64,000 nucleotides of DNA. It comes from Devosia sp. (GTDB taxonomy: Bacteria; Pseudomonadota; Alphaproteobacteria; Rhizobiales; Devosiaceae). The stretch spans positions 62,001 through 126,000 of the forward strand of contig JADGNE010000023.1 in NCBI GenBank assembly GCA_015234425.1. The letters are read 5' to 3'. The position numbers and the translations under genes were made by a program. The first letter of the stretch is position 1; each line of letters opens with the position of its first letter. The notes under the pieces are model-generated. The model had not been told where the DNA came from, did no database searches, and was given only the letters and a program-made list of their open reading frames with translations. Below, in pieces: positions 40,784-63,181 of the stretch.

Positions 40784-42457
40784 TTATGAAATCGTGTGAA
40801 CGGCGCGCTGGGTGCCGCCCTTTTCGGACTTGCTGGTGACCGTGATGGTGGCGCCGGCAGGGGCGCGAACCAACCATTCGACCGGCTTGGCATTGGCGGT
40901 CCACTGCTGGCCCCAGGGAGACCAGGGGTAGAGGCGCTCATTGCGGCCCGCGAGATTTCCGAGTTCGACCTTCTCCGGGTTCATGGCCAGCTCGCCGCCT
41001 TCGACGGTGATCGAGGCGACAACCGGCTTGGCAACCTTGTTGGTGATGGCCACGTCGGAGAGGTTGGTTGGCAGATAGCCGAAATTGCCGACCACGGCGC
41101 GCACCTTGTAGAGGTCGGCGCCCATGGGGGTGACCGAAAGGTCTTCGATCTTGACCTGGGGTGCGGCAGCGGCGTGCTTGAGATTGAACAGCACGTTCTG
41201 GCGGCAGATTTCCTCGAGCAGATTGCCGGGGGGATTGCGGTAGGTCCAGATATTGACCATGCCGCCGATTTCGACCTTGCCCAGCTGCGGGTGGTCAAAG
41301 CTCTTCCAGTCGCGCCAGCCCTTCTCGGCCATGTTGGCCTTGACGTAGTCGTAGACCTTCTGCTGGATCTCGGAATTGCGCGGGTAAAGGTTGTAATAGC
41401 CTTCCTTGGGCACGCCGGCGGTGCGCTCGAGGTCCCACAGTTCCGTGCCGAAGGAGATGATGCCCATCTCCTCATAGGTCCAGTCCATGAGGCCGCCGCG
41501 ACGCACGACCGATTTGTCGGGCGTGAACTCTTCATAGATCGAGACGGTGGGGTAGCCGGTGAGCTCGGTGCCGACCTTGCCGATCTCCTTGTAGAGATTC
41601 ATGTCGCGGGCGCTCATGGCGCTGTCCGGCTTGGTCATGGACGGGCGCAGGATGATGCCGCCATGGGTGTGATAGGCGCACATGCCGCAGATATTGGGAT
41701 GGGCCAGGATGAACTTGGCCATGCCGAAGGCCTCTGGCTCGGAGAGCGGGTGCTCGCCCGCGCCATATTCCTGGTGCGACCAATTGGTGGGGAAGTTGCG
41801 GTTCATATTGCCGTCGAAAGGCTTTTCGACCGGCACATTGACGCCGTTGTAATTGCGGATCGTGCCTTCCGGATACATGCGGAAGTACTGGCCGCCTTCC
41901 TCGCCCGGAGCCCGCTGGACCATGATGTCCGGGTTGTTGGCGTCCTTCTTCCACTCGCCCTTGGGATCGGGCACGCGCATCCAGACGATGAAGCCATCGC
42001 CATCGATATCTTCGGGGATCAGGCCTTCGATGCGATCTGCACCGGGCATGAAACGGCCATTGCCGCACCAGTTATAGTAGGGCGAGACCAGTGACAGCTC
42101 GGCCCCGTCCGGATTGATGCGCGGCAGGATATAGAAGGTCTGGGTGTCGACGAGGCGGGTGACCTCCTCGTCCTTGCCATACTGGGTGAGCAGGTGGAAC
42201 ACGGCGTAGAGCGCGGTCGCGCTCGTGGCGTGCTCCTCGGCGTGGATCTGGCCGTCGATGTAGTAGCCGGGTTTTTCGTCGAGCGGCCGGGTTTCCTTGT
42301 TGCCGATCTCGATAAGCCAGACGTCGCGGCCCTCGAAGGACTTGGCCAGCGACGACATGGTGGCAAGGTTCGGATGCGCCGCGACCAGCCGCTCCAGTGC
42401 AGCGGTCATTTCGGCATAGGTGTAGTAGCGATCGAAGTGGACGTCCAAGTCGGTCAT
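40784..42457 (-). CDS. M14-family zinc carboxypeptidase, cytosolic
   Basis: 557 residues. The zinc ligands H72-A-E-E75 (GQIHAEEHATS) and a later His in CAYHTHGG are in M14 order; FGTELWDLERTAG holds a likely catalytic Glu. A C-terminal beta-rich extension of about 150 residues follows. No signal peptide is present although many M14 enzymes are secreted, so it probably acts on imported peptides or amino-acid conjugates. Last gene of an eleven-gene minus-strand operon that also encodes OppD/OppF ATPases. Confidence 0.9.
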   Translation of the reverse strand: MTDLDVHFDRYYTYAEMTAALERLVAAHPNLATMSSLAKSFEGRDVWLIEIGNKETRPLDEKPGYYIDGQIHAEEHATSATALYAVFHLLTQYGKDEEVTRLVDTQTFYILPRINPDGAELSLVSPYYNWCGNGRFMPGADRIEGLIPEDIDGDGFIVWMRVPDPKGEWKKDANNPDIMVQRAPGEEGGQYFRMYPEGTIRNYNGVNVPVEKPFDGNMNRNFPTNWSHQEYGAGEHPLSEPEAFGMAKFILAHPNICGMCAYHTHGGIILRPSMTKPDSAMSARDMNLYKEIGKVGTELTGYPTVSIYEEFTPDKSVVRRGGLMDWTYEEMGIISFGTELWDLERTAGVPKEGYYNLYPRNSEIQQKVYDYVKANMAEKGWRDWKSFDHPQLGKVEIGGMVNIWTYRNPPGNLLEEICRQNVLFNLKHAAAAPQVKIEDLSVTPMGADLYKVRAVVGNFGYLPTNLSDVAITNKVAKPVVASITVEGGELAMNPEKVELGNLAGRNERLYPWSPWGQQWTANAKPVEWLVRAPAGATITVTSKSEKGGTQRAVHTIS

Positions 42458-42465
42458 GACAGTTC

Positions 42466-43490: not shown

Positions 43491-43494
<4 letters not shown>

Positions 43495-44537
43495 GCGCTT
43501 GCCCTCGTCGGCAGGTTGAGTTCCTTCCAGCGGATGCAGCGCACGCTGCGGCCGCCTTCGATTTCCTCGAGTGGCGGCTCGGCGGCGGCGCAGCGGTCTT
43601 CTGCATAGGCGCAGCGCGTGCGGAAGCGGCAACCGCTGGGGAGTTTGGTGAGAAGTGGGACATAGCCGGGGATGGCCTGGAGACGGGTCTTCTCCTCGGC
43701 GCCCATGCGCGGGATCGACTGCATCAGACCTGCCGTATAGGGCATCAGCGGCTGGCTGAAGAGCTCTTCCACCGTGCCGGTTTCGACGACCTGGCCGGCG
43801 TACATGACGACGACGCGCTGGGCCATTTCAGCCACCACGCCCAGATCGTGGGTGATGAACACGATGGCCATGCCCAGACGCTCCTGCAGATTGCGCATGA
43901 GGTCGAGGATCTGGGCCTGGATGGTCACGTCGAGCGCGGTGGTCGGCTCGTCGGCGATGAGCACGCTGGGCTCGCAGGCGAGCGCCATGGCGATCATTGC
44001 ACGCTGGCGCATGCCGCCGGACATTTCGTGCGGGAACTGGCTGGCGCGGCGGGCCGGTTCGGGAATGCCCACGATCTGCAGCATTTCGATGGCGCGCTTG
44101 TTGGCCTCGGCCTTGGAGACCTTCTGGTGCTCGATGACCACTTCGGCGATCTGCTGGCCGATGGTGTGCACCGGATTGAGCGAGGTCATCGGCTCCTGGA
44201 AGATCATGCCGATGTCGTTGCCGCGGATGCCGCGCATTTCCTTTTCGGAGAGCTTGGCCAGGTCCTTGCCGCGCAGGCGGATCTCGCCGCGGGAGATCTG
44301 GCCGATCTTCTTGGGCAGGAGCCGCATGATCGAGAGGCTGGTCACCGACTTGCCGGAGCCGGACTCGCCCACGATGGCGAGCGTTTCACCCGCCTTGACG
44401 GTGAAGCTCACGCCGTCGACGGCGCGAACGGTCTGGCCTTCCCCGACGAGGAAGGTGGTCTGCAGATCATCCACCTCGAGCAGGGGAGCCCCTTGCGTCC
44501 CGGCGTTGGCAGTTTGTGTTGGAGGCGAAACACTCAT
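43491..44537 (-). CDS. Oligopeptide-type ABC transporter ATPase (OppD-like)
   Basis: 348 residues. Walker A GESGSGKS (58-65), Q-loop [15 protein letters not shown], signature [15 protein letters not shown], Walker [13 protein letters not shown] and the C-terminal [17 protein letters not shown] Cys motif. It energises import together with OppF. It lies 1 bp after the allantoinase-like gene. Confidence 0.93.
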
Positions 44538-44538: not shown

Positions 44539-45939
44539 TCATGCGCTCATTCTGTTCAGGGCGGAGGTTCCGGTTGGCGAGGTATAGCGCCCCCAGCCGG
44601 GGGCACCGACGATGGATCCGTCATAGACGGTTTGGCCGTTGACGATGGTTCGGACAATTCGACCATTGTAGCGGGCGCCGTAGTAGAGCTGGGCGACGTC
44701 CTTGGCGAAGGTGTGCAGCGTGTCCGGAACGATCTCGGTCACGGCGCTCAGATCGACCAGCATCAAATCGGCATCAGCGCCTTCCTCGATACGGCCCTTG
44801 CTCGCAAGGCTAAAGCGTTTTGCGGCATTTGCCGACAAAAGTTCAACCGCTTTCTCAAGACTGATCTTGCCGCGACTGACGGCGTCGAGCATGGCCGGGA
44901 CCAGCACTTCGGAGCCGGGGGAGCCTGGCGGGGCGTCGACGAAATTGTCCTTCTTGGCCAGTTTTTCGGCATGGCTGAAGGCGGCGTGGTCGGTGGTGAC
45001 GTGGGTGATCACCCCGTCGGTAATCGCCTGCCAGAGCGCATCCTGATCGGCCTGGGTGCGGACCGGCGGATTGATCTTGGCAAAGACGCCGGCCCGAGCG
45101 ACGTCATCATTGGTGCGGGTGAGATAGTGCGGGCAGGTCTCGGCGGTAAAATCGGACGTACCGGCGAATGCGCGGAGGATCTTGATCGTCTCGGCGCTGG
45201 TCACATGGGCGATGTGCAGCTTTGCCTGGGCCTGGATATTCATCGCCAGCAGCTTGGCCACGGCGACGGATTCGCAGATGGCTGGGCGGGCGGCGAGGTG
45301 GCTGGAGGCAAGAGAGAGATCGGCGCCGGCGAGGTCGCGTTCCGCCTGAGCGAGCAGCTGGGCGCTTTCGGCGTGGATGACGACCGGCAGGCCGGTCTTG
45401 GCGACGGCCTTGAGGGCGCGCAGCTGGTCGGCTTCGTCCGGGAAGGAAAGACCGAAGAACTCATCATCCCGGCCTTCGGGGGCAGGGGTGGTGAAGATCT
45501 TGTAGCCGATGATGCCGGCGGCCTTCATGGCCGCGACACTGGCGTCAGTCAGATCGCCCGGCGCGGCATAGAGACTAAAATTGATAAAGGCGTGCTCGGC
45601 AAAATGGTCCCGACGCATCTCGATCTGCTCGGCCGAATTGCAGCAGGGCTTGCTGATCGGCATTTCGAACAGCGTGGTGATGCCACCAGCCGATGCTGCG
45701 CGCGTTTCGGTCTCTACGGTGCCGCGATCCGGATAGGCGGGCGCGCGGATATGAAAATGGATGTCGATGGCACCCGGCAGCACATGCTTGCCGGAGCCAT
45801 CGATAATGGACGCAGCTGCGCCCTCCCCACGGGGGAGGAGCGCAGCGATCTGGCCAGATGAAATTGCAACATCGAGTTCCACAAGCCCCGATGGGGTGAG
45901 GACCGCGGCATTGCGGATGATCGAGTCGTAATTGGCCAC
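44539..45939 (-). CDS. Cyclic amidohydrolase, allantoinase/hydantoinase-like
   Basis: 466 residues from GTG 45939, which overlaps the TAG stop of the upstream gene (TAGTG); the frame continues into that gene without family sequence. The binuclear zinc site is complete: H61-F-H63, the carboxylatable Lys in [24 protein letters not shown] and [20 protein letters not shown] is typical for allantoinase, hydantoinase and dihydroorotase. Isolated from pyrimidine genes and next to peptide-import and amide-cleaving enzymes, it likely opens a cyclic amide or ureide. Confidence 0.9.
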
Positions 45940-47365: not shown

Positions 47366-48544
47366 TCAGGCGGCCTTTCCGTGACGGGCCATAAAGCCCT
47401 TCATGCGTTCAACAGCGTCCTTGATGACCTCCAGCGGCTGGAGGAAAGACAGGCGGATGTAGCTGGGGTCATGGTCGCCGAACATGGTGCCGGGGAACAT
47501 CATGACACCGGTTTCGCGCAGCAGCTTTTCGCAGAAATCCGGGGTCGACATGCCGGTGCCGGACACGTTGATGTAGACGTAGAAGGCGCCGCCGGGATTG
47601 CCGTAGGTCAGGCCCATTTCGTCGAGCGCCGGCAGGAGGAAGGCGCGGCGTTCGGTATAGGCGTCGATCATCGCCTGGATCGGCTCCATCGGGCCGGTCA
47701 GCGCCGCAAGGGCGGCGTACTGCGAGACTGTGCAGGTGTTGATCGAGAGCGTGTGACGCATCTCGGTGACCTTGGTCACGAAATCAGCGGGAGCGGCGAG
47801 ATAGCCGACGCGCCAGCCGGTCATCGCGAAGGTCTTAGAGAAGCCGTTGAGCGTGATGGTGCGCTCCTTCATCCCCGGCAGGGTGCCGATGGAGAGGTGC
47901 TCATTACCGTCATAGATGATCTGGGCGTAGATCTCGTCCGAGACGATGATGATATCGTGCTTGATGGCCAGCTCGGCAATCTGCCGGATCACGGCCGGAG
48001 GGGTGACGGCGCCGGTCGGGTTGTTCGGCGAAACCAGCACGAACATGCGCGTCTTGGGCGTGATGCGCTTTTCGATCTCGTTGATGTCGAGCGCGAAATC
48101 GTCCTTCTGGAAGGTCGGAACGGGGACGGGCACGCCACCGGCAAAGTTGACGGCGGTGTCATAGGTCATGAAGCGCGGCGAGGTGATGAGCACCTCATCG
48201 CCCGGATTGATCAGCGCCAGCATGAGCAGGGTGATCGACTCCTGGACGCCGGCGGTGACGATGATCTCGTCAGCGGTATGGTCGAGGTTGTAGACGTCCG
48301 TGAGGTGCTCGGCGATGGCCTGGCGCAGCGCGGGAATACCGGTCGGGCCGGTATAGTGGTGCTGGTTCTCGTCGATGGCCTTCTTGGCCGCCTCGGCAAT
48401 GTGCTTGGGCGTGTGGAAGTCCGGATCGCCGCGGCCCATGGCGATGACATTGTTCATGCCGGCCGCGATTTCCATCATACGCGAGCGGAAGGAGAGATCT
48501 TCCTCGACGATACGGTTTGTCAGCTTGCTTGCGATGGCGCTCAT
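47366..48544 (-). CDS. PLP-dependent class I/II aminotransferase (minus-operon copy)
   Basis: 392 residues. PLP Lys237 in LNGFSKTFAMTGWRVGY, SPNNPTG, SDEIYAQIIYD and the carboxylate-binding Arg near the end (YIRLSF). The start MGRGDPDFHTPKHI is family-typical. It closely resembles the gene at 55540 in the opposite operon (shared GRGDPD, GFSK..AMTGWRVGY, P.L..A...L..L), so they are paralogues. Role: removal of an amino group to a 2-oxo acid. Confidence 0.92.
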   Translation of the reverse strand: MSAIASKLTNRIVEEDLSFRSRMMEIAAGMNNVIAMGRGDPDFHTPKHIAEAAKKAIDENQHHYTGPTGIPALRQAIAEHLTDVYNLDHTADEIIVTAGVQESITLLMLALINPGDEVLITSPRFMTYDTAVNFAGGVPVPVPTFQKDDFALDINEIEKRITPKTRMFVLVSPNNPTGAVTPPAVIRQIAELAIKHDIIIVSDEIYAQIIYDGNEHLSIGTLPGMKERTITLNGFSKTFAMTGWRVGYLAAPADFVTKVTEMRHTLSINTCTVSQYAALAALTGPMEPIQAMIDAYTERRAFLLPALDEMGLTYGNPGGAFYVYINVSGTGMSTPDFCEKLLRETGVMMFPGTMFGDHDPSYIRLSFLQPLEVIKDAVERMKGFMARHGKAA

Positions 48545-49779
48545 CAGTGCATTCTCTTTCCGGCGATATAGGTCTCGTTGACATGCTCGAGGGCGTAGAG
48601 GTCCTCGTCAGGCTTGCCGTCGACGATGATGAAGTCTGCTTCCTTGCCCACTTCGAGCGAGCCGATCTTGGCGTCGAGCTTGGACAGCTGTGCCGCACGG
48701 ATGGTGGCGGCGCGGATAGCGTCGAGACGGTTGGGGCAAACGCCCACTTCGACCATGAACTCGAGTTCAGGAGCGAGCTTGTCGTGCTCGACGGCCGGGC
48801 TGCCGGCGTCGGTGCCGAAGACGATCGGCACGCCGGCCTTGGCAGCGCGGATGAGACCGTCGAAGCGGGTCTTGTCGCCAACGGCGCGCTGACGCTCTTC
48901 GATCTTCCACTCAGGGATGCCATAGGCGCGAGCGATTTCCGGCTTGGCCTGGAGGACCAGCGCCGAGAAGGTGGTGACGATCGGGATCTTCTTGTCGAGG
49001 AGGATCTGGATGGTCTCGTCGCTCATCGAGCCGCCGTGTTCGACGCAGTCGACACCGAATTCGGCCACGCGACGGATGCAGGCGTCATAGGTGGCGTGGG
49101 CGGTGACGGGCAGCTTGTTGCGGTGCGCTTCGTCGATCAGGGCTTCGAGCTCGGCATCGGTGAATTCGAGCGTGTCGTGGCAGGCCATGATCTTGATCAG
49201 ATCGGCGCCGCCCTTGACCTGATCGCGGACTGCGCGGCGCATTTCGTCGGCGCCGGAAGCCTCGCGGCAGACCCAATAGGTGTGGCCGCCTGTCTGAATG
49301 ATGGACTCGCCGCTGACCAGAAGGCGCGGGCCGGGAACAATGCCCTGGGCGACAGCCTGCTTGGTGAAGAGATTGGCATTGTGCACGCCAAGGTCGCGAA
49401 CAAGGGTGATACCCGCGCGGAGCGACTTGAGCATATTGCCCGCGGCCTTATAGGCGCGGATTTCCGGGCTGTCATACATGGACTGGAAAGACAGCTCGTG
49501 GATGCCGTCCCAGCTCAGATGGCCATGCGACTGGATGAGGCCGGGGAGCAATGTCTTGCCGCCGGTGTCGCGGACCGCGAGGCCAGCCTCGGGCGTACCA
49601 AGATCAGACCGCGCCCCCACGCGCGTGATCTTGCCGCCACGAACTTCAATGAAGCCGTCTTCGATGACTTCATCGCCAACTGCCGTGATGATACGGCCGA
49701 GCACGATCTGATCGACCGGCTTGTTGTCGAACATCGGCTTGATGATCTTGGTGTAGTGCCAGAACGGCGGTTCAGCCAT
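48544..49779 (-). CDS. Metal-dependent amidohydrolase (imidazolonepropionase/prolidase-like)
   Basis: 411 residues. HGH in LIQSHGHLSWDG, a Lys in LIKIMACHDT, VTAHATYD, CVEHGGSMSD and FGTDAGS give the standard amidohydrolase metal set. The sequence style matches the Xaa-Pro dipeptidase/aryl-dialkyl subgroup. Cytosolic. It lies between the M24 gene and the aminotransferase gene; its stop and the next start share a base. It probably cleaves an amide in the pathway. Confidence 0.9.
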   Translation of the reverse strand: MAEPPFWHYTKIIKPMFDNKPVDQIVLGRIITAVGDEVIEDGFIEVRGGKITRVGARSDLGTPEAGLAVRDTGGKTLLPGLIQSHGHLSWDGIHELSFQSMYDSPEIRAYKAAGNMLKSLRAGITLVRDLGVHNANLFTKQAVAQGIVPGPRLLVSGESIIQTGGHTYWVCREASGADEMRRAVRDQVKGGADLIKIMACHDTLEFTDAELEALIDEAHRNKLPVTAHATYDACIRRVAEFGVDCVEHGGSMSDETIQILLDKKIPIVTTFSALVLQAKPEIARAYGIPEWKIEERQRAVGDKTRFDGLIRAAKAGVPIVFGTDAGSPAVEHDKLAPELEFMVEVGVCPNRLDAIRAATIRAAQLSKLDAKIGSLEVGKEADFIIVDGKPDEDLYALEHVNETYIAGKRMH

Positions 49780-49793: not shown

Positions 49794-50975
49794 TTAGAGA
49801 CTGATTATGCGTGTTTCGATGGGATGATCGGCCTGGAGCCGGCTGGGGATTTCGACCCGGTCAGCGTGGACGATCATGGTGTTGATGGTGCGGTAGCCGT
49901 CGATCCCCGGCCGGTAGACGCCCGGCTCGTTGGAAAAGACCATGCCGGGCGCAACGACAGTGGTGTCGCCCGGTGCGAGCCACGGAGCTTCATGGCCTTC
50001 GACGCCCATGCCATGGCCAATGCGATGGCGGATGGTGTCGCTGAGACCCGCATCCTTGAGGGCAGCGAGGGCAGCGACGTTGACGTCCTGGCAGAGGGCG
50101 CCGGGTTTCAGCGCAGCAACGCCGGCGGCGTCGCAGGCTTCGAGGGCCTCCATGATGCGGCGCTGTTCTGCGGACATCTCGCCGACGACATAGGTGATGC
50201 CGCTTTCGGCGTGATAGCCGCCCAGCGAGCAGCCGACGCCGGAGATCAGCGTGTGGCCGCGCTGCGGCTTGCTGTGGCCGATCGCGCCATGGGGCAGGGC
50301 CCCGCGTGGGCCGGTGTGGACGGACGAGGAAATGCCCAGCTTGGTGCCGGCAAAAGCCTCGCCGTAGTTCTTTTTCAGTTCCGCCAGCGCGAAGCTGGTG
50401 CTGTCGGCATAGAGGTCGAGCTCGGTGCCGCCCTGGGAGATGATGTCCCCGCCGTTGAGCAGCAGACGCTCAAGGCAGAGATCCGCATAGGTCGCCGCGA
50501 TGCGGGTGAGTTCCAGCTCCTCGGCCGTCTTTATGTAGCGGCAGGGGGCCGCGAAATCTTCGAGCACGAGGCTTTCCACCATCGCCTCGATGGGGCCGAC
50601 GAGACGGGCATCGAGCAGGTCGATGGCGATCTTGCGGGCGCCGGATTCCTTGACCATCCAGACGACGGGATGAACGACGCCGGGGAATTCCTCGTAGATC
50701 TTGAGGTCAACGCCTTCAACCGGCTCGGCGTTTTCCAGTTCGAGCAGCGGCACGAACAGCGTCGGCTTGCCGTTGAGCGGAATGTAGAGCGCGATGGGGC
50801 GCTCATTGACCGAGAAGTGGAAGCCGCAGGCGTAAAAGACATTGGCGGGCGTCAGCAGCAGAACGCCGTCGAGGCCACGCTCCGCCGCCAGCGCGCGGAT
50901 TCGATCCTGCACGCTGACGCGAAAATCGAGGCCGATCGGACGGACGGGCTTGCGCTCCCGGGTGAGGCTGGTCAC
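49794..50975 (-). CDS. M24-family creatinase-like protein with substituted metal site
   Basis: 393 residues with the creatinase/prolidase N-domain and a pita-bread C-domain. The His (IRHRIGHGMGVEGHEAP) and one Glu (FSNEPGVY) remain. The two Asp ligands expected in LVDVGA and SDITR read LISGVG and AESGITY, and the last Glu (RIED) reads RTIN. Three of five metal ligands are thus missing, as partly in creatinase, which works without metal. Ectoine hydrolase (DoeA) is another relative. A metal-independent C-N hydrolase is more likely than an aminopeptidase. It overlaps Ldh by 4 bp. Confidence 0.85.
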   Translation of the reverse strand: MTSLTRERKPVRPIGLDFRVSVQDRIRALAAERGLDGVLLLTPANVFYACGFHFSVNERPIALYIPLNGKPTLFVPLLELENAEPVEGVDLKIYEEFPGVVHPVVWMVKESGARKIAIDLLDARLVGPIEAMVESLVLEDFAAPCRYIKTAEELELTRIAATYADLCLERLLLNGGDIISQGGTELDLYADSTSFALAELKKNYGEAFAGTKLGISSSVHTGPRGALPHGAIGHSKPQRGHTLISGVGCSLGGYHAESGITYVVGEMSAEQRRIMEALEACDAAGVAALKPGALCQDVNVAALAALKDAGLSDTIRHRIGHGMGVEGHEAPWLAPGDTTVVAPGMVFSNEPGVYRPGIDGYRTINTMIVHADRVEIPSRLQADHPIETRIISL

Positions 50976-53854: not shown

Positions 53855-53908
53855 TTGACAACCGTTCAATTCCCTGTCCAACATTAGCTCGTCTGATTGT
53901 CGACAATC
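53855..53908. promoter_or_regulatory. Divergent control region with perfect GntR-type palindrome
   Basis: GATTGTCGACAATC (53895-53908) is a perfect 14-bp palindrome whose core TTGTCGACAA fits the TxGTxxxACxA pattern of FCD-type GntR operators. A consensus TTGACA at 53855-53860 lies 34 bp before it, with only a weak -10 (CAACAT region). The site sits between the DUF4438 gene and the M32 peptidase gene, so it may control both operons; the GntR protein encoded at 60538 is the natural candidate. Confidence 0.6.
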
Positions 53909-55539: not shown

Positions 55540-56736
55540 ATGGAACTTTCAAGCCTGCACGCCAATCGCCTGGCGGATCGTATCAAGCTCAAGGAAGAGC
55601 ACGTCATCACCAAGATGGCGAACATTGCCGAAGGCCTGACCGACGTGATCCGTCTCGGCCGCGGCGATCCCGATCTCGACACGCCTGCCCATATCGTCAA
55701 GGCCGGCCAGGATGCGCTGGGTCGTGGTGAGACCCATTATGGCCACCCGCTCGGGCTTCCGGCCCTGCGCACGGCCATTGCCGCCAACATCAAGGCCCAT
55801 GGCGGCGCCGACTATGCGATCGATGAAATCGTGGTCACCCCTGGTGGCCAGCACGCCATGTTCATCATTGCGCTCTCGCTGCTGAACCCAGGCGACGAAA
55901 TCATCGTGCCGTGCCCCGGCTACAACCCCTATGGCCAGGCGGCCGAACTCGCCGACGCCACGGTTGTGCCGGTCCGCATGGACATGTCGACCAACTTCAC
56001 CCTCACCGCAGAGATGGTGAAGAAGCACATCACGCCCAAGTCCAAGGTGCTGGTGCTGATCAACCCGAACAACCCGACCGGCACCGTGACGGCACCGGAC
56101 GAGGTCGAGAAGATCGCCAAGCTCGCCATCGAGCACGATCTGATCGTGATTTCGGACGAGATCTATGCGCGCCTGACCTATGGCAACCAGCGCATCCAGC
56201 CGGTCGCATCGCTCCCGGGCATGCGCGAGCGCACCATCACGCTGTCGGGCTTCTCCAAGGCCTATGCCATGACCGGCTGGCGCGTCGGCTACTTCGCCGG
56301 TCCGCGCGAGCTGATCGTGGCCATGGCCGAGATCAACCATGCCTTCGCCATTTCCGTCGCTTCGGTCAGCCAGCACGCCGCGCTCGCCGCACTGACCGGC
56401 CCGCAGGAATGCGTCGAAGAGATGCGCCTGACCTATGACGAGCGCCGCAAGGCCATGTGCGAGGGTCTTGATGCACTGGGCATTCCCTATGCCGAGCCGC
56501 AGGGCGCCTTCTACGTCTATGCCGACGTATCGGTGGTGGGCCTGCCGGCCAGCGAGTTCTGCCAGCGGCTGCTCGCCGAGGGCAAGGTGATGATCTACCC
56601 CGGCATCATCTACGGCGACTATCGCGACGATTTCGTCCGCATGTCGCTGACCCAGTCGGTCGATCGCATCCGCGAAGCCATGGACCGCATCAAATCCGTC
56701 GTCGAAACCATCCGCGCTGAGCGCAAATCTGCCTGA
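55540..56736 (+). CDS. PLP-dependent class I/II aminotransferase (plus-operon copy)
   Basis: 398 residues. PLP Lys240 in LSGFSKAYAMTGWRVGY, INPNNPTG, ISDEIYARLTYG and FVRMSLTQ. Paralogue of the aminotransferase at 47366. AGAGGA lies 6 nt upstream of the ATG. Placed after the M32 carboxypeptidase, it could process the amino acid released by that enzyme; the substrate is not predictable. Confidence 0.92.
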   Translation: MELSSLHANRLADRIKLKEEHVITKMANIAEGLTDVIRLGRGDPDLDTPAHIVKAGQDALGRGETHYGHPLGLPALRTAIAANIKAHGGADYAIDEIVVTPGGQHAMFIIALSLLNPGDEIIVPCPGYNPYGQAAELADATVVPVRMDMSTNFTLTAEMVKKHITPKSKVLVLINPNNPTGTVTAPDEVEKIAKLAIEHDLIVISDEIYARLTYGNQRIQPVASLPGMRERTITLSGFSKAYAMTGWRVGYFAGPRELIVAMAEINHAFAISVASVSQHAALAALTGPQECVEEMRLTYDERRKAMCEGLDALGIPYAEPQGAFYVYADVSVVGLPASEFCQRLLAEGKVMIYPGIIYGDYRDDFVRMSLTQSVDRIREAMDRIKSVVETIRAERKSA

Positions 56737-57233: not shown

Positions 57234-58226
57234 ATGGCCGAACAGAAGACCATCACCGTCGGTACCGCAGTCGCAGCTCCGGGCGAAATCGTCCGCGGTG
57301 CGATCCCCGTGACCACCCTGGCCGGCGGCTCCAAGGTTGAGATCCCCGTCGTCATCGTCAATGGCGTCAATCCGGGCCCGGTGTTCTGGGTCGACGGCGC
57401 TATCCACGGCGACGAGCCGGAAGGCCCGATGGCCTGCGCCATCGCCCTGCGCGAAGTTGATCCCAAGCAGCTCTCGGGCACGCTGGTCATGGTGCCGGTG
57501 CTCAACGTCATGGCATTCGAGAACGCCAACCGCGGCAACCCGCTGGATACGTTCTCCTTCGACATGAACCGCATCTATCCGGGCCGCGCCGATGGCTACC
57601 TCAGCGAGCGTATCGCCTGGGCGCACTCGGAATGGATGAGCCAGGTCGCCGACCTCGAAATCTCGATCCACTCGGGTGGCGCGCACTCCTTCCTCGCCAA
57701 GGCAATCTTCGTCGACGAGACCCCCGAGTCCGTCGAGCTGGCCAAGGCCATGGGTGAAGGCTGGGGCTGCATCATGTCCAACTTCCTGCCCAAGGGTTCG
57801 CCCATGGCGCAGATGAAGGCGATCGGCAAGACCGGCATCACCGTCGAACTCGGTGGCCGTTCGGCAACCTCGCCGGAAGCCTTTGCCAAGGTGTCGCGCG
57901 ACCTCGCCGACTCCATCATCAACATCCTGCGCCACTACAAGATGTATCCTGGCCAGGCGACCTATCCGACCGACGCGACGCGCGGTCAGCAGGAAGCCCT
58001 CCTGGCACCGTGCTCGGGCATCTTCGTGCCGACCCCGGGCGTGGACTTCCTCAAGCCGATGAAGAAGGGCGACTCCATCGCCAAGATCATCAACATCTTC
58101 GGCGACGAACTGGCCGAACTGGTTGCACCCGCCGACGGCATGTTCTTCGGCCTGCGCGCACTGCCTAACGTCAACACCGGCGACTGGTGCTGCTTCTTCA
58201 ACAAGGTTGAGGGGAAGCGAGACTAA
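57234..58226 (+). CDS. Succinylglutamate desuccinylase/aspartoacylase-family deacylase
   Basis: 330 residues. Zinc motif H-G-D-E in DGAIHGDEPEGPMACA, the second His in ISIHSGGAHSF, and the catalytic Glu in ITVELGGRSATS. A C-terminal beta domain (LLAPCSGIFVPTPGVDFLKPMKKGDSI) as in the DoeB/AstE-like subgroup. It hydrolyses an N-acyl amino acid to amino acid and acid. Spacing of 3 bp to the VOC gene indicates one operon. Confidence 0.9.
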   Translation: MAEQKTITVGTAVAAPGEIVRGAIPVTTLAGGSKVEIPVVIVNGVNPGPVFWVDGAIHGDEPEGPMACAIALREVDPKQLSGTLVMVPVLNVMAFENANRGNPLDTFSFDMNRIYPGRADGYLSERIAWAHSEWMSQVADLEISIHSGGAHSFLAKAIFVDETPESVELAKAMGEGWGCIMSNFLPKGSPMAQMKAIGKTGITVELGGRSATSPEAFAKVSRDLADSIINILRHYKMYPGQATYPTDATRGQQEALLAPCSGIFVPTPGVDFLKPMKKGDSIAKIINIFGDELAELVAPADGMFFGLRALPNVNTGDWCCFFNKVEGKRD

Positions 58227-58258
58227 AGGTGGGTACCGGGGCAGGGCAGGAAGCAAAC

Positions 58259-59164
58259 ATGCGCGATTTCGTGGGATATGCCAACCGGCCCCCAACCGTC
58301 CGCTGGCCCGGCAATGCCGGGGTGGCCGTCAACTTCGTCCTCAACTACGAAGAAGGATCCGAGTATTCGGTCGGTGAGGGAGACGGACGTTCCGAATCTG
58401 CCCTCATTGAGGTCTCCGCCCCGCGCGTGCCCCAGGGGGACCGCGATCTCGCGTCCGAGAGCATGTACGAGTACGGCTCTCGGGTCGGGTTCTGGCGGCT
58501 CTACAGATTGTTCCGGGATCGTAATCTCCCGGTGACGATCTTTGCCGCCGCCCTTGCGCTCGAACGCAATGCGGAGGTGGCTGAAGCCATCGCCGCGACC
58601 GACTGGGACTTGGCTGCCCACGGCTATCGCTGGATCGAGCACTACAAGCTCGACGAAGCGACAGAGCGGGAGCACATCGCCAAGGCGCATGAGACGATCC
58701 TTCGCGTCATCGGCCGGGCGCCTCAGGGCTGGTATTGCCGCTATAGCCGGAGCGAACGGACCCGACGCCTCGTCGTCGAGCACGGTGGCTACGGCTATGA
58801 CAGCGACGCCTACAATGACGAGGTTCCCTACTGGACCGAAGTCTCGGGCAAGCAGCACCTTGTGCTGCCCTATTCGCTGGTCACCAACGACGCCAAATTC
58901 CTGGCGGGTGGCGGTATCGAGAATCCGGCAGATTATGCCGCTTTCCTGATCGAAAGCTTCGAGGTGCTTCATGCAGAGGGCAAGCAGACTCCGCGCATGA
59001 TGTCGGTGGGCCTGCATCCGCGGGTCATCGGTCACCCTGGTCGTTTTGCTGGCCTGGTCAAGTTCATCGACCATATCAGCAAGCGCGACGGCGTCTGGAT
59101 CGCCAAGCGTGAAGACATTGCCGCCCACTGGCGCAAGGTCATGCCCGCGGACGGTGCAGCATGA
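58259..59164 (+). CDS. PuuE-type polysaccharide-deacetylase-family protein (allantoinase-like)
   Basis: 301 residues from ATG 58259 (AGGA upstream); a GTG at 58229 is the alternative. The sequence runs closely with PuuE proteins: VGYANRPPTVRWPGNAGVAVNFVLNYEEGSEYSV, SMYEYGSRVGFWRLYRLF, DLAAHGYRWIEH, GWYCRYSRS and MMSVGLHPRVIGHPGR. In purine catabolism PuuE opens allantoin without metal help from the classical allantoinase fold. Typical HisAsp residues of carbohydrate deacetylases are altered. It overlaps the next gene by 4 bp. Confidence 0.88.
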   Translation: MRDFVGYANRPPTVRWPGNAGVAVNFVLNYEEGSEYSVGEGDGRSESALIEVSAPRVPQGDRDLASESMYEYGSRVGFWRLYRLFRDRNLPVTIFAAALALERNAEVAEAIAATDWDLAAHGYRWIEHYKLDEATEREHIAKAHETILRVIGRAPQGWYCRYSRSERTRRLVVEHGGYGYDSDAYNDEVPYWTEVSGKQHLVLPYSLVTNDAKFLAGGGIENPADYAAFLIESFEVLHAEGKQTPRMMSVGLHPRVIGHPGRFAGLVKFIDHISKRDGVWIAKREDIAAHWRKVMPADGAA

Positions 59165-59637
59165 CCAGAACCGTCCGGCTCCGGCCGCTTCCCAGTGTCG
59201 AGGAATTTGCGCCATTCGGCACGTTCATCCGCAGGCCGGATAAGCATGGCGAACGCCGCTTCTTCTCCGACTGGTTGGGCGGTGAGGGGCTGGCACCGGT
59301 CTTTCACGTCAACTCGATGGCGCCGACAATTTTGCCGGCGCCCATCACCAAGCTGGAACGCCATCCTCACGCGGCGCAGTGCTTCGTGCCGCTGGATGTC
59401 GAACGCTACATCGTCACCGTGGCCCCGTCGCTTGCCGATGGCAGCCCGGACCTGGCGGGTCTGCGCAGCTTCATCGTGCCGAGCTCGCTTGGCACGATCT
59501 ACAAATCCACCGTCTGGCATGCGGGCGCCTCCGTGCTCGATCGGGACGGCGCCTTCGCTGTTCTCATGTGGCGCGGCAGGGACGATGACGACGAGTTCAT
59601 CGAAATCCCCGCCGTGACCCTTGTTTCTCAGGATTAA
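59161..59637 (+). CDS. Ureidoglycolate lyase-like protein (AllA family)
   Basis: 158 residues. FAPFGTFIRRPD, ITKLERHPHAAQCFVPL, and STVWHAGASVLD match the AllA cupin, with the conserved His pair in the second block. AllA splits ureidoglycolate to glyoxylate and urea. The combination with the PuuE-like gene is the standard ureide order, although no allantoate amidohydrolase, uricase or urease gene lies in the window. A related ureide-like substrate is the alternative. Confidence 0.88.
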   Translation: MTRTVRLRPLPSVEEFAPFGTFIRRPDKHGERRFFSDWLGGEGLAPVFHVNSMAPTILPAPITKLERHPHAAQCFVPLDVERYIVTVAPSLADGSPDLAGLRSFIVPSSLGTIYKSTVWHAGASVLDRDGAFAVLMWRGRDDDDEFIEIPAVTLVSQD

Positions 59638-59640: not shown

Positions 59641-60537
59641 ATGACCCGCACGCCAAAACTCTATGTCCCGGCCATCACGCCCTTCAAGGCTGATCTGAGC
59701 ATCGACACCGAGCGGTTCATCGCGAACTCGAAGGCTCTGCTGGATGACGGCGCCGATGGCCTGGCGCCATTCGGTACCACCAGTGAAGCCAATTCCATGT
59801 CGGTGGCAGAACGCATCGAACTGCTCGATGCGCTGATCGATAGCGGCATCGCCGCCGACCGGCTAATCCCCGGTACCGGCTGCGCGGCGTTGACCGACAG
59901 TATTGCGCTGACCCGCCATGCGGTGTCGCGCGGGTGCCTCGGCACGCTGTCTCTGCCGCCGTTCTACTACAAGGGGGTGCCGGAGCAGGGGATCGTCGAC
60001 AGCTTCTCCGCGATCATTGACGCCGTGGCCGAAGAGAAACTGCGCATCTATCTCTACCACATTCCGCAGATGACCGGCGTGCCGGTGACCCTGACGCTGA
60101 TTGAAGCGCTGATGGCCAAGTTCCCTGGCATTTTCGTTGGCCTCAAGGACAGCTCGGGCAATTGGGAAAACACCCATTCCGTCATCAAGGCATTCCCCGA
60201 GCTCGACGTCTATTCAGCGTCCGAAGCACTGATCCCGCAGAACGTCGCAGCCGGTGGTGCGGGTTGCATCAGCGCCTCAGCCAACGTAAACGCACGCAAT
60301 ATCAAGGCGTTGATGGCAGCGCTTGGGACGGAGAAGGAAGCCGCGATCGCTGCCGGCGTCACCGAAGTGCGCAAGATATTTGAAGGCCTGCCGTTGATCC
60401 CGGCGATCAAGGCTGCTGCCGCTGCACGCCATAAGGACCAGAGCTACGCCATCGTCCGCCCGCCGTTCGTCAAGCTTGCCGATAGCCATCAGGCTGCGAT
60501 CGATCGCGCCGTCCAGCTTGCAGAAACCGAGGTCTGA
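59641..60537 (+). CDS. DapA-family class I aldolase/lyase
   Basis: 298 residues. Schiff-base Lys169 (VGLKDSSGNW), Tyr139 (IYLYHIPQMTG) and the carboxylate-binding G45-TTS loop (APFGTTSEANS) are all present. Members include dihydrodipicolinate synthase, N-acetylneuraminate lyase and KDG/hydroxyproline-pathway enzymes. Being in a catabolic operon, a pyruvate-releasing aldolase or dehydratase is more likely than lysine synthesis. It stops one base before the GntR start. Confidence 0.9.
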   Translation: MTRTPKLYVPAITPFKADLSIDTERFIANSKALLDDGADGLAPFGTTSEANSMSVAERIELLDALIDSGIAADRLIPGTGCAALTDSIALTRHAVSRGCLGTLSLPPFYYKGVPEQGIVDSFSAIIDAVAEEKLRIYLYHIPQMTGVPVTLTLIEALMAKFPGIFVGLKDSSGNWENTHSVIKAFPELDVYSASEALIPQNVAAGGAGCISASANVNARNIKALMAALGTEKEAAIAAGVTEVRKIFEGLPLIPAIKAAAAARHKDQSYAIVRPPFVKLADSHQAAIDRAVQLAETEV

Positions 60538-61215
60538 ATGAGCCCCGCCGGTTCCACCTCCGACATCTCCCGTATCGAAAACGTGCCACTGCGCGTCTCG
60601 GTGGCCGAGATCATTCGGAAGGCAATTATCGATGGGACCATGCGCCCCGGGACGCCGATCGTGGAGATGGCCCTGGCGGACCAGCTCAGCGTCTCTCGCG
60701 CTCCGGTACGGGAGGCAATCCAGATCCTCGAGGCCGACGGGCTGATCGAGAGCGTTCCCTACAAGGGCAAGCGCGTAAAGCCGCTGACCCTCAAGGAAGT
60801 CGAGGAGCTCTATAGCCTGCGCGAACAGTTCGAGGCTTTCGCCATTCGGCGTGTCGTCGAGCGCAAGTCTGACATCTCGACCCTGCGCGGGCACAGCGAC
60901 GACATGTTCGCGTCGGCAGAGCGGGGCGACTTTTCCAGCCTCATGCAGTCCGACGAGGCGTTTCATCGCGACCTGATCAAGGCGGCGGACCACGCTCTCA
61001 TGCTCAGCATGTGGGACAATCTCTACCTGCGCATTCGTCAGATCATGGCATTGCGTAACAGCGCCAACCGCGACCTGCGCGAGGTCGCTGCCAAGCATCC
61101 GCCGATCGTGGATGCCATCGAGAGCGGCGACATGATCCTGGCGATCTCGCTGATCTCCGACCACACGCGTTCCGCGTCCCAGATCCGTCCGGAAGAACTG
61201 GGGATCGAGGTATGA
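60538..61215 (+). CDS. GntR-family (FCD domain) regulator of the divergent catabolic operons
   Basis: 225 residues. The winged helix reads SVAEIIRKAIIDGTMRPGTPIVEMALADQLSVSRAPVREAIQIL, followed by an FCD domain with likely metal ligands in SDEAFHRDLIKAADH and SLISDHTRSA. It is translated from an ATG directly following the DapA-like stop. Its most likely target is the TTGTCGACAA palindrome at 53.9 kb between the two operons. Confidence 0.92.
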   Translation: MSPAGSTSDISRIENVPLRVSVAEIIRKAIIDGTMRPGTPIVEMALADQLSVSRAPVREAIQILEADGLIESVPYKGKRVKPLTLKEVEELYSLREQFEAFAIRRVVERKSDISTLRGHSDDMFASAERGDFSSLMQSDEAFHRDLIKAADHALMLSMWDNLYLRIRQIMALRNSANRDLREVAAKHPPIVDAIESGDMILAISLISDHTRSASQIRPEELGIEV

Positions 61216-62114
61216 CGCGTCGCGCTCTGATTACCGGTGCCGGTGGTTTCGTTGGGGGGGTCCTCACGAAGGGCCTGCTCGACGCCGGTTATGCGGTAAC
61301 TGGCCTCGACCAGTTTTTCGACGAATTTGCCCGGGCCAGTCTGGCCGGTGCCGAGCTCGTCGAAAGCGATATCACGGCCGAAGTGCTGGACGGCCTGGGC
61401 GGCTTTGACCTCGTCATTCATGGCGCGGCGATCACCTCGCCATCGCCCGAAGCGGGCCTCTCCGCTTTCGATTGCCTGCGTATCAACTGCGAGACCACGC
61501 TCGCCGTGCTCGCCAAGGCACGCGCCTGCGGGGCAAAGGACTTTGTCCTGCTCTCGTCCTCTGGTGTGTTCCGCTCCGAAGACGCCGATGGGGTGTTGCT
61601 GGAAAGCACACCGGCACGCGCGACCATTCCCTATGCCATTGCCAAGCGGGCAGGGGAGCTGCTGCTCGAAACCGAATTGCCCGGAGAGATGCGGGCCATC
61701 GCTATTCGCCTCGGCCCCATCTATGGCCCGGGCGAGCGCGTGCGCCAGACCCGCCAATATATGTCGCCGCTCCGTCGCTGGATCGAAGCCGGTCGCAATG
61801 GCGATGCCATTGTCGTTGACCTGCCGCGCTCGCGCCGCGACTGGACCTATGGCCCGGACCTGCCCAAGGCGCTGCTGGCGCTGCTCGACCGCCAGCCCGC
61901 CATCTCCGGCGTCATCCATTTCACCTCCGGCGAGGATATCGACGATGTCGAACTTGCCGAGATGATTGCTGCAAAATACGGGGTCGAGGTTCGGCTGGCC
62001 GAGGCTGCCGACTATCGCGTGCCCATGACCAGTGAAATCGTGCCGCCTTCCGACCTCTTCGGTTGGACTGCTCTGGCCTCTGGTCTCAATTCGGTCATGG
62101 AGGACCGCCCATGA
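61212..62114 (+). CDS. NAD-dependent epimerase/dehydratase family protein
   Basis: 300 residues. GAGGFVGGVL nucleotide motif, HGAAITSPSPEAG, LLSSSGVF and catalytic Y-A-I-A-K. An extended-SDR fold that oxidises, epimerises or dehydrates sugars and related polyols. The start overlaps the GntR stop (ATGA); the stop overlaps the next start (ATGA). Its presence suggests that the compound degraded has a sugar or sugar-acid part. Confidence 0.9.
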   Translation: MTRRALITGAGGFVGGVLTKGLLDAGYAVTGLDQFFDEFARASLAGAELVESDITAEVLDGLGGFDLVIHGAAITSPSPEAGLSAFDCLRINCETTLAVLAKARACGAKDFVLLSSSGVFRSEDADGVLLESTPARATIPYAIAKRAGELLLETELPGEMRAIAIRLGPIYGPGERVRQTRQYMSPLRRWIEAGRNGDAIVVDLPRSRRDWTYGPDLPKALLALLDRQPAISGVIHFTSGEDIDDVELAEMIAAKYGVEVRLAEAADYRVPMTSEIVPPSDLFGWTALASGLNSVMEDRP

Positions 62115-63181
62115 CACTGCGTCTTATCCTCGTCGGGCTCGGTGCCCGTGCCCAGTTCTGGATGCGTGTGATCAAGGACAATCCTGATTGCACCATTGTC
62201 GGGCTGATCGATCCCAGTGAAGCAGCGCGCGAGCGTGCGCTCGCCCAGTGGCCGAACGCAACCGCCTCAGCCGATCTCGACATCGTGGGCAAGATCGAAG
62301 CCGACGCCATCGTCCTGATTACCCCGCCGGGTGGCCGCGAAGCGCAGATGGAGGCGGCCTGCCGCGCCAAGCTGCCGATCCTGGCCGAAAAGCCGCTCGC
62401 AGACAGTGTGCCGCTGGCCAAGCGCTATGTCGAAATGGCCGAGGAAGCCGGCGTGCCGTTGATGGTTGGCCTCAATTTCCGCTACCTGCCGGTTACGCAA
62501 AAGACCATGTCGCTGTTCGACACTACTGTCGGCAAGCCGGAATTTTCGCGGTTCACCTATGAGCGCTGGCGTGATGGGACGCTGGCACGGCTGAACAAAT
62601 ACCCCCTCACCATGGCCCAGCCCATGCTGTGGGAACAGTCGATCCACCACTTCGACCTCATGCGCTATGTCTACCAGTCTGAGCTGGTCTCGGTCTCGGC
62701 CAAGACCTTCAATCCCAGCTGGTCGATGTATGCCGACGACGCCAATGTCAGCGCGCTGTTCACCTTCGCCAATGGGGTGATCGTCATCTACCAGGGCACC
62801 TGGCAGTCGAACTGGCAGGAGCCGGGCTTCACCTGGCGCCATGAGTGTGCCGAAGGCGTGGTCATGCAGAACGACCAGTTCGGTGACCTGCATTTCGCCC
62901 TCCGACACGACACGCAGCTGACCAGCGTTGAACTGCCGCCCTATGAGCAGTGGTACAACGACGCCGTCCTGCTGCTTGAAGCCTTTGTGGCCGCCCTCAA
63001 GGGCGAGGCCGAGCTTCAGTGTTCCGGTCGCGACCACCTGCGATCGCTGCACATGGTTGAGGCCTGCATCATTTCATCAACCGAAAACCGTACGGTCGAC
63101 ATCACAGAATTCGGTGCCGAAAGCGGCTCGAACGAGAAGGTCGTCCGCTCAAATCCTGCTGCCCACGTGGAGCAGGTCTGA
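62111..63181 (+). CDS. Gfo/Idh/MocA-family oxidoreductase
   Basis: 356 residues from ATG 62111; an earlier in-frame ATG at 62063 lies inside the epimerase gene and adds non-family sequence. The nucleotide motif is VGLGARAQFW, the catalytic Lys is in ILAEKPLADS, and QSIHHFDLMRYV holds the active-site His/Asp. The family oxidises or reduces sugars and inositols with NAD(P). Last enzyme gene of the operon before the structured leader. Confidence 0.92.
   Translation: MTLRLILVGLGARAQFWMRVIKDNPDCTIVGLIDPSEAARERALAQWPNATASADLDIVGKIEADAIVLITPPGGREAQMEAACRAKLPILAEKPLADSVPLAKRYVEMAEEAGVPLMVGLNFRYLPVTQKTMSLFDTTVGKPEFSRFTYERWRDGTLARLNKYPLTMAQPMLWEQSIHHFDLMRYVYQSELVSVSAKTFNPSWSMYADDANVSALFTFANGVIVIYQGTWQSNWQEPGFTWRHECAEGVVMQNDQFGDLHFALRHDTQLTSVELPPYEQWYNDAVLLLEAFVAALKGEAELQCSGRDHLRSLHMVEACIISSTENRTVDITEFGAESGSNEKVVRSNPAAHVEQV

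What the first reader, a model, noticed from the sequence alone, without database searches (positions are those of the whole stretch)
40784..63181. Large divergent catabolic system for an unidentified peptide- or ureide-like compound
About 21 enzyme/transport genes on two divergent operons share a control region. They include four peptidase/deacylase types (M14, M24-like, M32, aspartoacylase), three cyclic-amide or ureide proteins (allantoinase-like, PuuE-like, AllA-like), two paralogous aminotransferases, two DUF4438 proteins and sugar-type dehydrogenases. I know no described pathway with this set.
Basis: partly seen in the sequence, partly recalled or inferred. Interest (0 to 1): 0.75.

Follow-up and report, generated by a model that had tools for sequence, protein, structure and literature searches.

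The report
Travelling gene cluster degrading unknown compound
A block of more than twenty genes, kept in the same order in distantly related bacteria and apparently passed between them, looks like a dedicated importer and dismantling line for one small nitrogen-rich compound that has not been identified.

Summary
Window 40784-63181 carries 21 genes in two divergent operons (one is a GntR regulator). The same unit runs past the window edge to about 69.6 kb (two SBP5 binding proteins, two Dpp/Opp permeases, a second GFO/IDH dehydrogenase). The operons are one unit: all 40 loci fetched with DUF4438a are collinear, in Devosia, rhizobia, Rhodobacteraceae, Acidobacteriota, Gemmatimonadota and one actinobacterium. 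A palindrome, GATTGTCGACAATC, without a second copy within one mismatch in the 3.98 Mb genome, lies in the shared gap; its core recurs (at most one mismatch) in 27 of 38 gaps against 0.6 expected. Tree and patchy occurrence suggest horizontal spread.

Corrections: the 'M24 peptidase' has lost three of five metal ligands; an unlisted, highly conserved protein is a TIM barrel resembling glycoside hydrolases; the allantoin-type proteins fall below curated cut-offs.

Best reading: a GntR-controlled pathway that imports and dismantles a small composite compound with amide bonds, a cyclic amide/ureide/amidine ring and perhaps a sugar-like part. The unit is well supported; the substrate is not identified. 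I found no matching description in open-access text searches.

The parts
53895..53908 (.). Palindrome GATTGTCGACAATC, proposed operator of the cluster's GntR regulator, in the gap between the two operons
   Evidence: Only site with 0 or 1 mismatch in the whole 3.98 Mb genome; the other 35 places listed have 2. Core recurs in the same gap of other loci
52932..53813 (-). DUF4438b
   Evidence: PF14505 + PF20999; 38 of 38 scorable loci
52057..52935 (-). DUF4438a, 37% identical to DUF4438b
   Evidence: PF14505 + PF20999; PDB 3dcl/3n99; model's only matches at E <= 0.001 are TM1086 chains
50972..52054 (-). Ldh_2 family 2-hydroxyacid (or cyclic imine) dehydrogenase
   Evidence: PF02615 350 bits; no NCBIfam equivalog reached
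49794..50975 (-). Pita-bread (M24-fold) hydrolase with most of the dinuclear metal site lost, creatinase/DoeA-like
   Evidence: PF00557; D to G, D to E, E to I at three of five ligand positions against prolidases
48544..49779 (-). Amidohydrolase of the Xaa-Arg/Xaa-Pro carboxypeptidase / ochratoxinase group
   Evidence: PF01979; PDB 9kov, 3mtw, 3be7, 4c5y; conserved HxH, K, H, H, D (pattern recalled)
47366..48544 (-). Class I/II aminotransferase AT1, 44% identical to AT2
   Evidence: PF00155
45939..47363 (-). GHL10-like TIM-barrel protein; Asn195-Glu196 at the end of strand 4
   Evidence: PF02638 26.7 bits, below cut-off 27.9; 73-92% identity in ten other loci, median 79% over 35 loci; model and Foldseek to Cwp19, PgaB, GH164 and beta-galactosidases
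44539..45939 (-). AllB/hydantoinase-like cyclic amidohydrolase (GTG start at 45939)
   Evidence: PF01979; TIGR03178 307.3 against cut-off 357.9; start; absent in 7 of 31 scorable loci
43491..44537 (-). OppD/DppD ATPase
   Evidence: PF00005 + PF08352
42466..43494 (-). OppF/DppF ATPase
   Evidence: PF00005 + PF08352; start
40784..42457 (-). M14 zinc carboxypeptidase
   Evidence: PF00246 142.8 bits
54008..55528 (+). M32 carboxypeptidase, HExxH kept
   Evidence: PF02074 578 bits; start
55540..56736 (+). Class I/II aminotransferase AT2
   Evidence: PF00155
56745..57230 (+). VOC protein (epimerase/glyoxalase-like)
   Evidence: PF13669; TIGR03081 61.8 against cut-off 115
57234..58226 (+). AstE/AspA-type deacylase, closest solved relative DoeB
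   Evidence: PF24827; 6twl; DoeB model 96.6 against cut-off 402.7
58229..59164 (+). PuuE-like cyclic-imide hydrolase
   Evidence: TIGR03212 374.5 against cut-off 424.6; aligned with 1z7a, 3cl6, 3s6o
59161..59637 (+). AllA-like (ureidoglycolate lyase family)
   Evidence: PF04115 75.5 bits; no NCBIfam cut-off reached
59641..60537 (+). DHDPS-family Schiff-base aldolase/dehydratase; accessory (absent in 15 of 31 scorable loci)
   Evidence: PF00701
60538..61215 (+). GntR-FCD regulator
   Evidence: PF00392 + PF07729
61212..62114 (+). SDR epimerase/dehydratase-like
   Evidence: PF01370
62111..63181 (+). GFO/IDH/MocA dehydrogenase, IolG-like
   Evidence: PF01408; TIGR04380 91.6 against cut-off 355; start
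63391..64000 (+). SBP5 binding protein, continues to about 64950; then a second SBP5 (64959-66560), permeases (66619-67590, 67601-68521) and a second GFO/IDH (68537-69598), by L003 positions + 61999
   Evidence: PF00496, PF00528, PF01408; same order in four other genomes of the family, all four that were looked at on this side
30766..40586 (+). Neighbouring convergent operon (GntR-like, HyuA, HyuB, GMC oxidoreductase, two SDRs; a DegT gene on the minus strand at 35378-36517), a possible third module
   Evidence: Both SDRs and the GntR-like gene next to M14 in 4 of 5 relatives checked, HyuA/HyuB in 3 of 5, GMC and DegT in 1 of 5

Best explanation
One GntR-controlled, horizontally transferred catabolic unit. 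A Dpp-type ABC importer (SBP5 proteins, permeases, OppD/OppF) brings a small compound into the cell intact; the degradative enzymes show no obvious signal peptide (my reading of the N-termini). Inside, carboxypeptidase-type hydrolases (M14, M32, the ochratoxinase-like amidohydrolase) and an AspA/DoeB-type deacylase cut amide bonds. Ring-opening hydrolases (AllB-like, PuuE-like and the creatinase/DoeA-like protein; in Devosia perhaps also HyuA/HyuB) open a cyclic amide, ureide or amidine, and the AllA-like protein removes the ureido end product. The GHL10-like barrel splits a glycosidic or glycoside-like bond. Two aminotransferases, Ldh_2, VOC, SDR, GFO/IDH and (optional) the DHDPS aldolase turn the pieces into central keto acids. 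The GntR protein represses both operons at the palindrome until a pathway intermediate binds. Shown by sequence: gene content, shared layout, conserved palindrome, loss of metal ligands, family assignments. Inferred: that it is one pathway, the order of steps, the sugar-like part, repression by this GntR. The chemical identity of the substrate and the role of the two DUF4438 proteins are open.
For: All 40 loci collinear; where both flanks were in the locus, Epim (30 of 30), AllA and PuuE (32 of 32 each), VOC (34 of 34), AT2 (35 of 35), M32 (36 of 36), DUF4438b (38 of 38), DUF4438a and Ldh2 (39 of 39 each) and OppD (28 of 28) are never missing. Palindrome: exact core in 19 of 38 gaps, at most one mismatch in 27 of 38, expected 0.00 and 0.61; no second site within one mismatch in the own genome. 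Exact core in 15 of 21 loci with the cluster GntR, 0 of 9 without it (Fisher p 0.0007, relatedness not corrected). Rhodobacteraceae (Paracoccaceae/Roseobacteraceae) fall in two distant places of the tree, one holding an actinobacterium, one next to Acidobacteriota and Gemmatimonadota. GHL10-like protein in only 3 of 337 class genomes and 13 of 121 family genomes, own genome counted in both. Importer genes. Ring-opening families. Glycoside-hydrolase-like fold; a distant relative sits beside a GH57-type gene and an Opp-type importer.
Against: No substrate, no expression data, no enzyme assay. The GHL10-like protein is below the Pfam cut-off (26.7 v 27.9), the model is of modest confidence (pLDDT 71.5), and only the strand-4 Glu is a plausible catalytic residue, so it may not be a glycosidase. 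Three of 38 gaps have no palindrome core and eight only a two-mismatch version; nine loci lack the GntR gene, yet seven of these keep a variant core, so another protein may use it there. AllB (7 of 31), AspA (4 of 33), DHDPS (15 of 31), GntR (9 of 30), M24 (2 of 37), AT1 (2 of 36), Amidohyd (1 of 37) and GHL10 (1 of 36) are missing in some scorable loci, so not all steps can be needed for one obligatory route. The locus set was drawn with DUF4438a and favours full clusters. The tree tool warns that label changes on the tree are no proof of transfer.
Confidence: 0.5

Rival explanations
1. Two or more separate pathways (peptide scavenging and cyclic-ureide degradation) lie side by side and share a regulator; there is no single composite substrate.
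For: General peptide enzymes (M14, M32, Opp) sit beside ureide-type enzymes; some genes are dispensable. A reduced set (GHL10, AT1, GFO/IDH, OppDF, part of a permease, an aldo-keto reductase) exists in L091 on a contig that ends there.
Against: Peptide-type and ureide-type genes are mixed within both operons and travel together in four phyla; none of the 40 loci shows only one of the two halves, but the search was seeded with DUF4438a and is biased to full clusters.
Confidence: 0.2
2. Catabolism of a glycopeptide or an acylated/amidinated acidic sugar (for example flagellin- or LPS-type nonulosonic acids with peptide or amidino groups).
For: DHDPS family, GntR-FCD, GFO/IDH, SDR epimerase and an SBP5 importer; the GHL10-like model is nearest Cwp19, which is also the nearest fold to the GH156 sialidase (PMC6811678, passages). 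That SBP5 importers, NAL and NanR occur in sialic acid uptake is recalled, not tested.
Against: DHDPS is absent in 15 of 31 scorable loci; NAL models score far below cut-off; class I/II aminotransferases, AllA-like and PuuE-like proteins are not explained. The GH156 paper says active-centre residues are not shared with Cwp19.
Confidence: 0.1
3. Ectoine-like cyclic amidine degradation: the DoeA-like M24 protein opens the ring, a DoeB-like deacylase and aminotransferases follow.
For: M24 protein has lost most of the metal site; the AspA protein's best solved relatives are DoeB.
Against: DoeA and DoeB equivalog cut-offs are far from met (30.6 v 613 and 96.6 v 402.7); prolidases score better than DoeA in the PDB search. 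M24 gene missing in 2 of 37 and AspA in 4 of 33 scorable loci; most other genes unexplained.
Confidence: 0.07
4. An unusual allantoin/purine ureide pathway.
For: AllB-, PuuE-, AllA- and AllD-like relatives.
Against: None meets its cut-off; AllB-like is absent in 7 of 31 scorable loci; no urate-side genes among the 21; peptidases, GHL10-like and aminotransferases unexplained.
Confidence: 0.04
5. A biosynthetic rather than catabolic cluster (for example of a cyclic guanidine amino acid; the GntC model was third-best for AT1 and best for AT2 in NCBIfam).
For: GntC model 347.8 and 318.6 bits against a cut-off of 415.
Against: Cut-off not met; the unit has an importer with binding proteins and many hydrolases, and no ligase or NRPS gene among its 21 genes.
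Confidence: 0.04

Closest known systems
Ectoine degradation (DoeA/DoeB/DoeD)
   Same: M24-fold ring opener without the metal site, AstE/AspA-type deacylase and an aminotransferase next to an importer and a GntR-type regulator (layout and metal independence of the doe/eut system recalled)
   Different: Scores far below the equivalog cut-offs; many further genes; Dpp-type importer
PuuE/AllB/AllA allantoin pathway
   Same: Same enzyme families for ring opening and ureido release
   Different: All below cut-offs; AllB-like and PuuE-like together; no purine genes in the unit; linked to carboxypeptidases and a glycoside-hydrolase-like protein
Dpp/Opp/Gsi peptide import and use systems
   Same: SBP5, two permeases, two ATPases, carboxypeptidases
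   Different: No equivalog cut-off reached for the binding proteins; ring and sugar-type enzymes in the same operons
TM1086 (DUF4438)
   Same: Fold and 34-36% identity for DUF4438a
   Different: Two diverged copies in one operon; in most f29 genomes one match per genome, beside a nitrilase-family gene in the loci examined

Membership tests
M24 metallopeptidase (prolidase/aminopeptidase P) | Five dinuclear metal ligands D, D, H, E, E (ligand set recalled) | tested here: not met
   Three of five replaced (G, E, I) in the window and the 12 other readable rows; L034, garbled by ORF choice, set aside; in L017 and L027 a Glu lies one place after the lost one
Creatinase/DoeA-type pita-bread hydrolase | Same fold with the metal site lost (recalled for both enzymes) | tested here: inconclusive
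   Fold and ligand loss seen, but the match to creatinase 1chm and DoeA 6twk is weak (about 38 bits, prolidases up to 130) and catalytic residues were not compared
DoeA equivalog | TIGR02993 cut-off 613 bits | tested here: not met
   30.6 bits
PuuE allantoinase | TIGR03212 cut-off 424.6 bits | tested here: not met
   374.5 bits; full-length alignment with 3cl6, a metal-independent small-ring hydrolase (PMC3084791 and PMC10967932, passages)
AllB allantoinase | TIGR03178 cut-off 357.85 bits | tested here: not met
   307.3 bits; HxH, K, H, H, D pattern kept (pattern recalled)
AllA ureidoglycolate lyase | PF04115 gathering score; an NCBIfam model | tested here: inconclusive
   Pfam met (75.5 v 23); all 8 NCBIfam models listed are below cut-off
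M32 carboxypeptidase | PF02074 and HExxH | tested here: met
   578 bits; HE.GH invariant in 15 rows
GHL10 glycoside hydrolase-like | PF02638 gathering score 27.9 | tested here: not met
   26.7 bits; fold resemblance to Cwp19; Asn-Glu at the strand-4 place, partner residue unclear
GntR-FCD regulator | PF00392 + PF07729 | tested here: met
   59.3 and 69.6 bits
Dpp/Opp ABC importer | SBP5, two BPD permeases, two ATPases with oligo_HPY | tested here: met
Any of the above as an enzyme of known substrate | Turnover of the family's substrate | not testable with these tools
   Needs assays

The most novel reading that the evidence does not exclude
A previously undescribed catabolic pathway for a widespread natural compound that joins an amino-acid/amide part, a cyclic ureide or amidine and a sugar-like part, with the DUF4438 pair catalysing a step (such as lactam or ureide ring handling) for which no enzyme is known. 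In f29 genomes the DUF4438 next to a nitrilase-family gene would then be a related metabolite-repair pair.
Probability: 0.3. Interest if true: 0.75.

Novelty: new variant of a known kind. Interest (0 to 1): 0.55.

Why it matters
Twenty-odd collinear genes shared by members of four phyla (one of them by a single genome) mean selection for using a compound met in soil and water, yet I found no described pathway that fits. The cluster gives DUF4438, a family with a structure released in 2008 (3dcl) and no function that I could find, a rich genomic context, and offers direct handles on the substrate: two binding proteins, one regulator with a defined candidate operator, and gene removals in culturable Devosia.

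Tried and rejected
Plasmid collection with DUF4438a: no match. Literature searches for the gene set, DUF4438, TM1086 and PF14505: no paper on function (searches returned none; two returned the same 7, which by title are allele or strain names and, PMC2661377, a crystallisation survey that I did not open; listings only, open-access PMC only). A search on the creatinase/ectoine hydrolase mechanism found nothing. Six ORFs in inserts or at the ends of Acidobacteriota and Gemmatimonadota loci gave no informative enzyme of the unit. The M14 paralogue on contig C31 (66% identical) sits beside a FecCD/Peripla_BP_2 importer and a GFO/IDH and did not help. G171 (L070) has a lone DUF4438 near a trypsin-like gene: not informative. 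DUF4438 fold search found only TM1086 at E <= 0.001. The GHL10-like protein as a GH156-type sialidase was considered and not adopted. Substrates considered from memory and set aside for lack of any test: streptothricin, bacillithiol/mycothiol, mycosporine-like amino acids, modified tRNA nucleosides, hydroxyproline arabinosides, glycation products. Counts are superseded: hits between paralogues (AT1/AT2, the two DUF4438s, AllB/other amidohydrolases) made 5 of 40 loci look rearranged and shifted several counts.
Full report
What is there. The window is G000:C23:62001-126000 of a 3.98 Mb genome; its nearest named relatives are Devosia. ORFs and Pfam give 11 genes on the minus strand from 53813 down to 40784 and 10 on the plus strand from 54008 to 63181. 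Likely starts are ATG 54008 for M32, GTG 45939 for AllB-like, ATG 43494 for OppF and ATG 62111 for GFO/IDH. Reading on past the window, the plus operon continues with two SBP5 proteins, two permeases and a second GFO/IDH, followed by MdoG/OpgC-type genes. The importer that OppD/OppF need is therefore split between the two operons.

One unit. Forty loci were fetched with DUF4438a. Their gene maps show the same divergent order in Devosia, Pelagibacterium, Rhizobium/Neorhizobium, Aureimonas, Reyranella (MAG), Rhodobacteraceae, Acidobacteriota MAGs, Gemmatimonadota MAGs and Enemella evansiae (Actinomycetota, one genome). All 40 are collinear for the genes they hold, and 38 hold both M32 and DUF4438b; the other two are cut contigs. 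Counting only genes whose two flanks are inside the locus: Epim 30 of 30, AllA 32 of 32, PuuE 32 of 32, VOC 34 of 34, AT2 35 of 35, M32 36 of 36, DUF4438b 38 of 38, DUF4438a 39 of 39, Ldh2 39 of 39, OppD 28 of 28; M24 35 of 37, Amidohyd 36 of 37, AT1 34 of 36, GHL10 35 of 36, AspA 29 of 33; AllB 24 of 31, GntR 21 of 30, DHDPS 16 of 31. MocA, OppF and M14 could not be scored this way. Four of the absences (Amidohyd, AT1, GHL10, AllB) are in one short MAG contig, L031. The set is biased, since every locus was found through DUF4438a. One locus, L015, has M14 between the two operons.

Shared control. The gap 53814-54007 holds GATTGTCGACAATC (53895-53908). In the whole genome there is no other site with 0 or 1 mismatch; 35 places have two. 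The core TTGTCGACAA is exact in 19, one mismatch off in 8, two off in 8 and absent in 3 of the 38 loci that have both divergent genes; random stretches of equal size from the same loci would give 0.00 exact and 0.61 with at most one mismatch. In L015 there are two copies, one at each side of M14. Loci with the cluster's GntR gene have the exact core in 15 of 21 cases (the other six are two mismatches off), loci without it in 0 of 9; close kinship of loci makes that p-value (0.0007) optimistic. Seven of the nine still hold a core with one or two mismatches.

Spread. A tree of eight strung proteins (35 loci with at least seven of the eight, plus the window) puts Rhodobacteraceae (Paracoccaceae/Roseobacteraceae by the labels) in two distant places, one holding the actinobacterium, the other next to Acidobacteriota and Gemmatimonadota. 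L035 is a long branch and five rows have odd composition. Cross-phylum identity of the strung proteins is about 78-81%. The GHL10-like protein occurs in 3 of 337 genomes drawn from the class (own genome; G413 with a reduced set; G506 distant) and 13 of 121 from the family (own genome and one distant match included). This is the pattern of a transferred accessory unit. MAG contigs may be misbinned, so single phylum labels are weak, and the tree tool warns that label changes are no proof of transfer.

Corrections to the gene list. (a) The M24 protein aligns with prolidases over its length, but its two Asp ligands read Gly and Glu and the last Glu reads Ile; the same holds in the 12 other readable rows, L034 (garbled by ORF choice) being set aside; L017 and L027 have a Glu one place further on. 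That creatinase and ectoine hydrolase work without metal on this fold is recalled. (b) The protein 45939-47363 was not in the list: 73-92% identical in ten other loci, median 79% over 35 loci, the highest of the broadly sampled genes (M14's 80% rests on 14 loci); below the Pfam GHL10 cut-off, TIM barrel in the model (pLDDT 71.5), nearest Cwp19, PgaB, GH164 and beta-galactosidases. Its Asn195-Glu196 ends strand 4, the place of Asn160-Glu161 of a beta-galactosidase and Asp195-Asp196 of Cwp19 (PMC5765458, passages); the strand-7 partner is not clear. (c) PuuE-like, AllB-like and AllA-like proteins miss the NCBIfam cut-offs, so they share family and probably ring chemistry, not a proven substrate. 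PuuE itself is described as metal-independent with a small cyclic imide as substrate (PMC3084791, PMC10967932, passages). (d) The amidohydrolase belongs near arginine/proline carboxypeptidases and ochratoxinase, with metal ligands kept.

Mechanism. See the best explanation: import intact, cut amide bonds, open the ring, release a ureido group, cleave the sugar-like part, transaminate and oxidise. Shown: families, linkage, conserved palindrome. Inferred: order of steps, unity of the substrate, presence of a sugar-like part, repression. Reduced sets elsewhere fit a sugar link but do not prove it: L091 has GHL10 (64%), AT1 (60%), GFO/IDH, OppDF, part of a permease and an aldo-keto reductase, cut by the contig end, with weaker HyuA/HyuB relatives (40% and 32%) on the other strand; L090 has a 28% GHL10 relative beside a GH57-type gene and an Opp-type importer; L093 has 30% relatives of GHL10 and AllB with an SBP3 importer.

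A third module. In Devosia, the convergent operon 30766-40586 is also kept beside M14: it holds a GntR-like gene (30% to the cluster's GntR by BLAST, not scanned with Pfam), HyuA and HyuB (nearest caprolactamase models but under cut-off), a GMC oxidoreductase and two SDRs. Both SDRs and the GntR-like gene recur in 4 of 5 relatives examined, HyuA/HyuB in 3 of 5, GMC and DegT in 1 of 5; the fifth relative (L097) has only a 48% GntR-like match and no M14 there. One of the four is a very near genome (92-99%), so independence is limited. If it belongs, it adds one more ring-opening enzyme.

Verdict. No description was found in the searches made, which cover open-access PMC text only.

Noticed in passing
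L048-L067 (mostly family f29; the 20 best-scoring matches): A DUF4438 gene lies close to a nitrilase-family (CN_hydrolase) gene on the same strand in 18 of 20 loci, one of the 18 being the query's own genome; L048 and the short L050 are the exceptions (Pfam on L068; tblastn).
   Followed up: partly
30766-40586: Convergent operon with a GntR-like gene, HyuA, HyuB, GMC oxidoreductase and two SDRs, partly conserved next to the cluster in Devosia.
   Followed up: partly
L033, L035, L040, L041, after AllB: In these four loci (three Rhodobacteraceae and Enemella evansiae) AllB is followed by about 600-residue ABC half-transporters instead of OppD/OppF (ABC_membrane + ABC_tran by Pfam in L033 and L035; ATPase part by tblastn in all four).
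   Followed up: partly
L075:7276-8655: An M20 dipeptidase-like gene lies between M14 and an SDR at the end of the same cluster in another genome of the class.
   Followed up: no
L004 (C31) 228-2024: A second M14 gene, 66% identical, beside a FecCD/Peripla_BP_2 importer and a GFO/IDH gene in the same genome.
   Followed up: partly
27829-29874: FGE-sulfatase family protein followed by a TauE-type exporter.
   Followed up: no
L008, L042: Two rhizobial clusters lack the M24-fold gene (and DHDPS), with the neighbours closed up, which suggests that this step is replaceable.
   Followed up: no
L036: Several cluster genes (such as AspA, AT2, M32, Ldh2, M24, OppD) give two tblastn pieces each, as if read in two frames; assembly errors or decay.
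   Followed up: no
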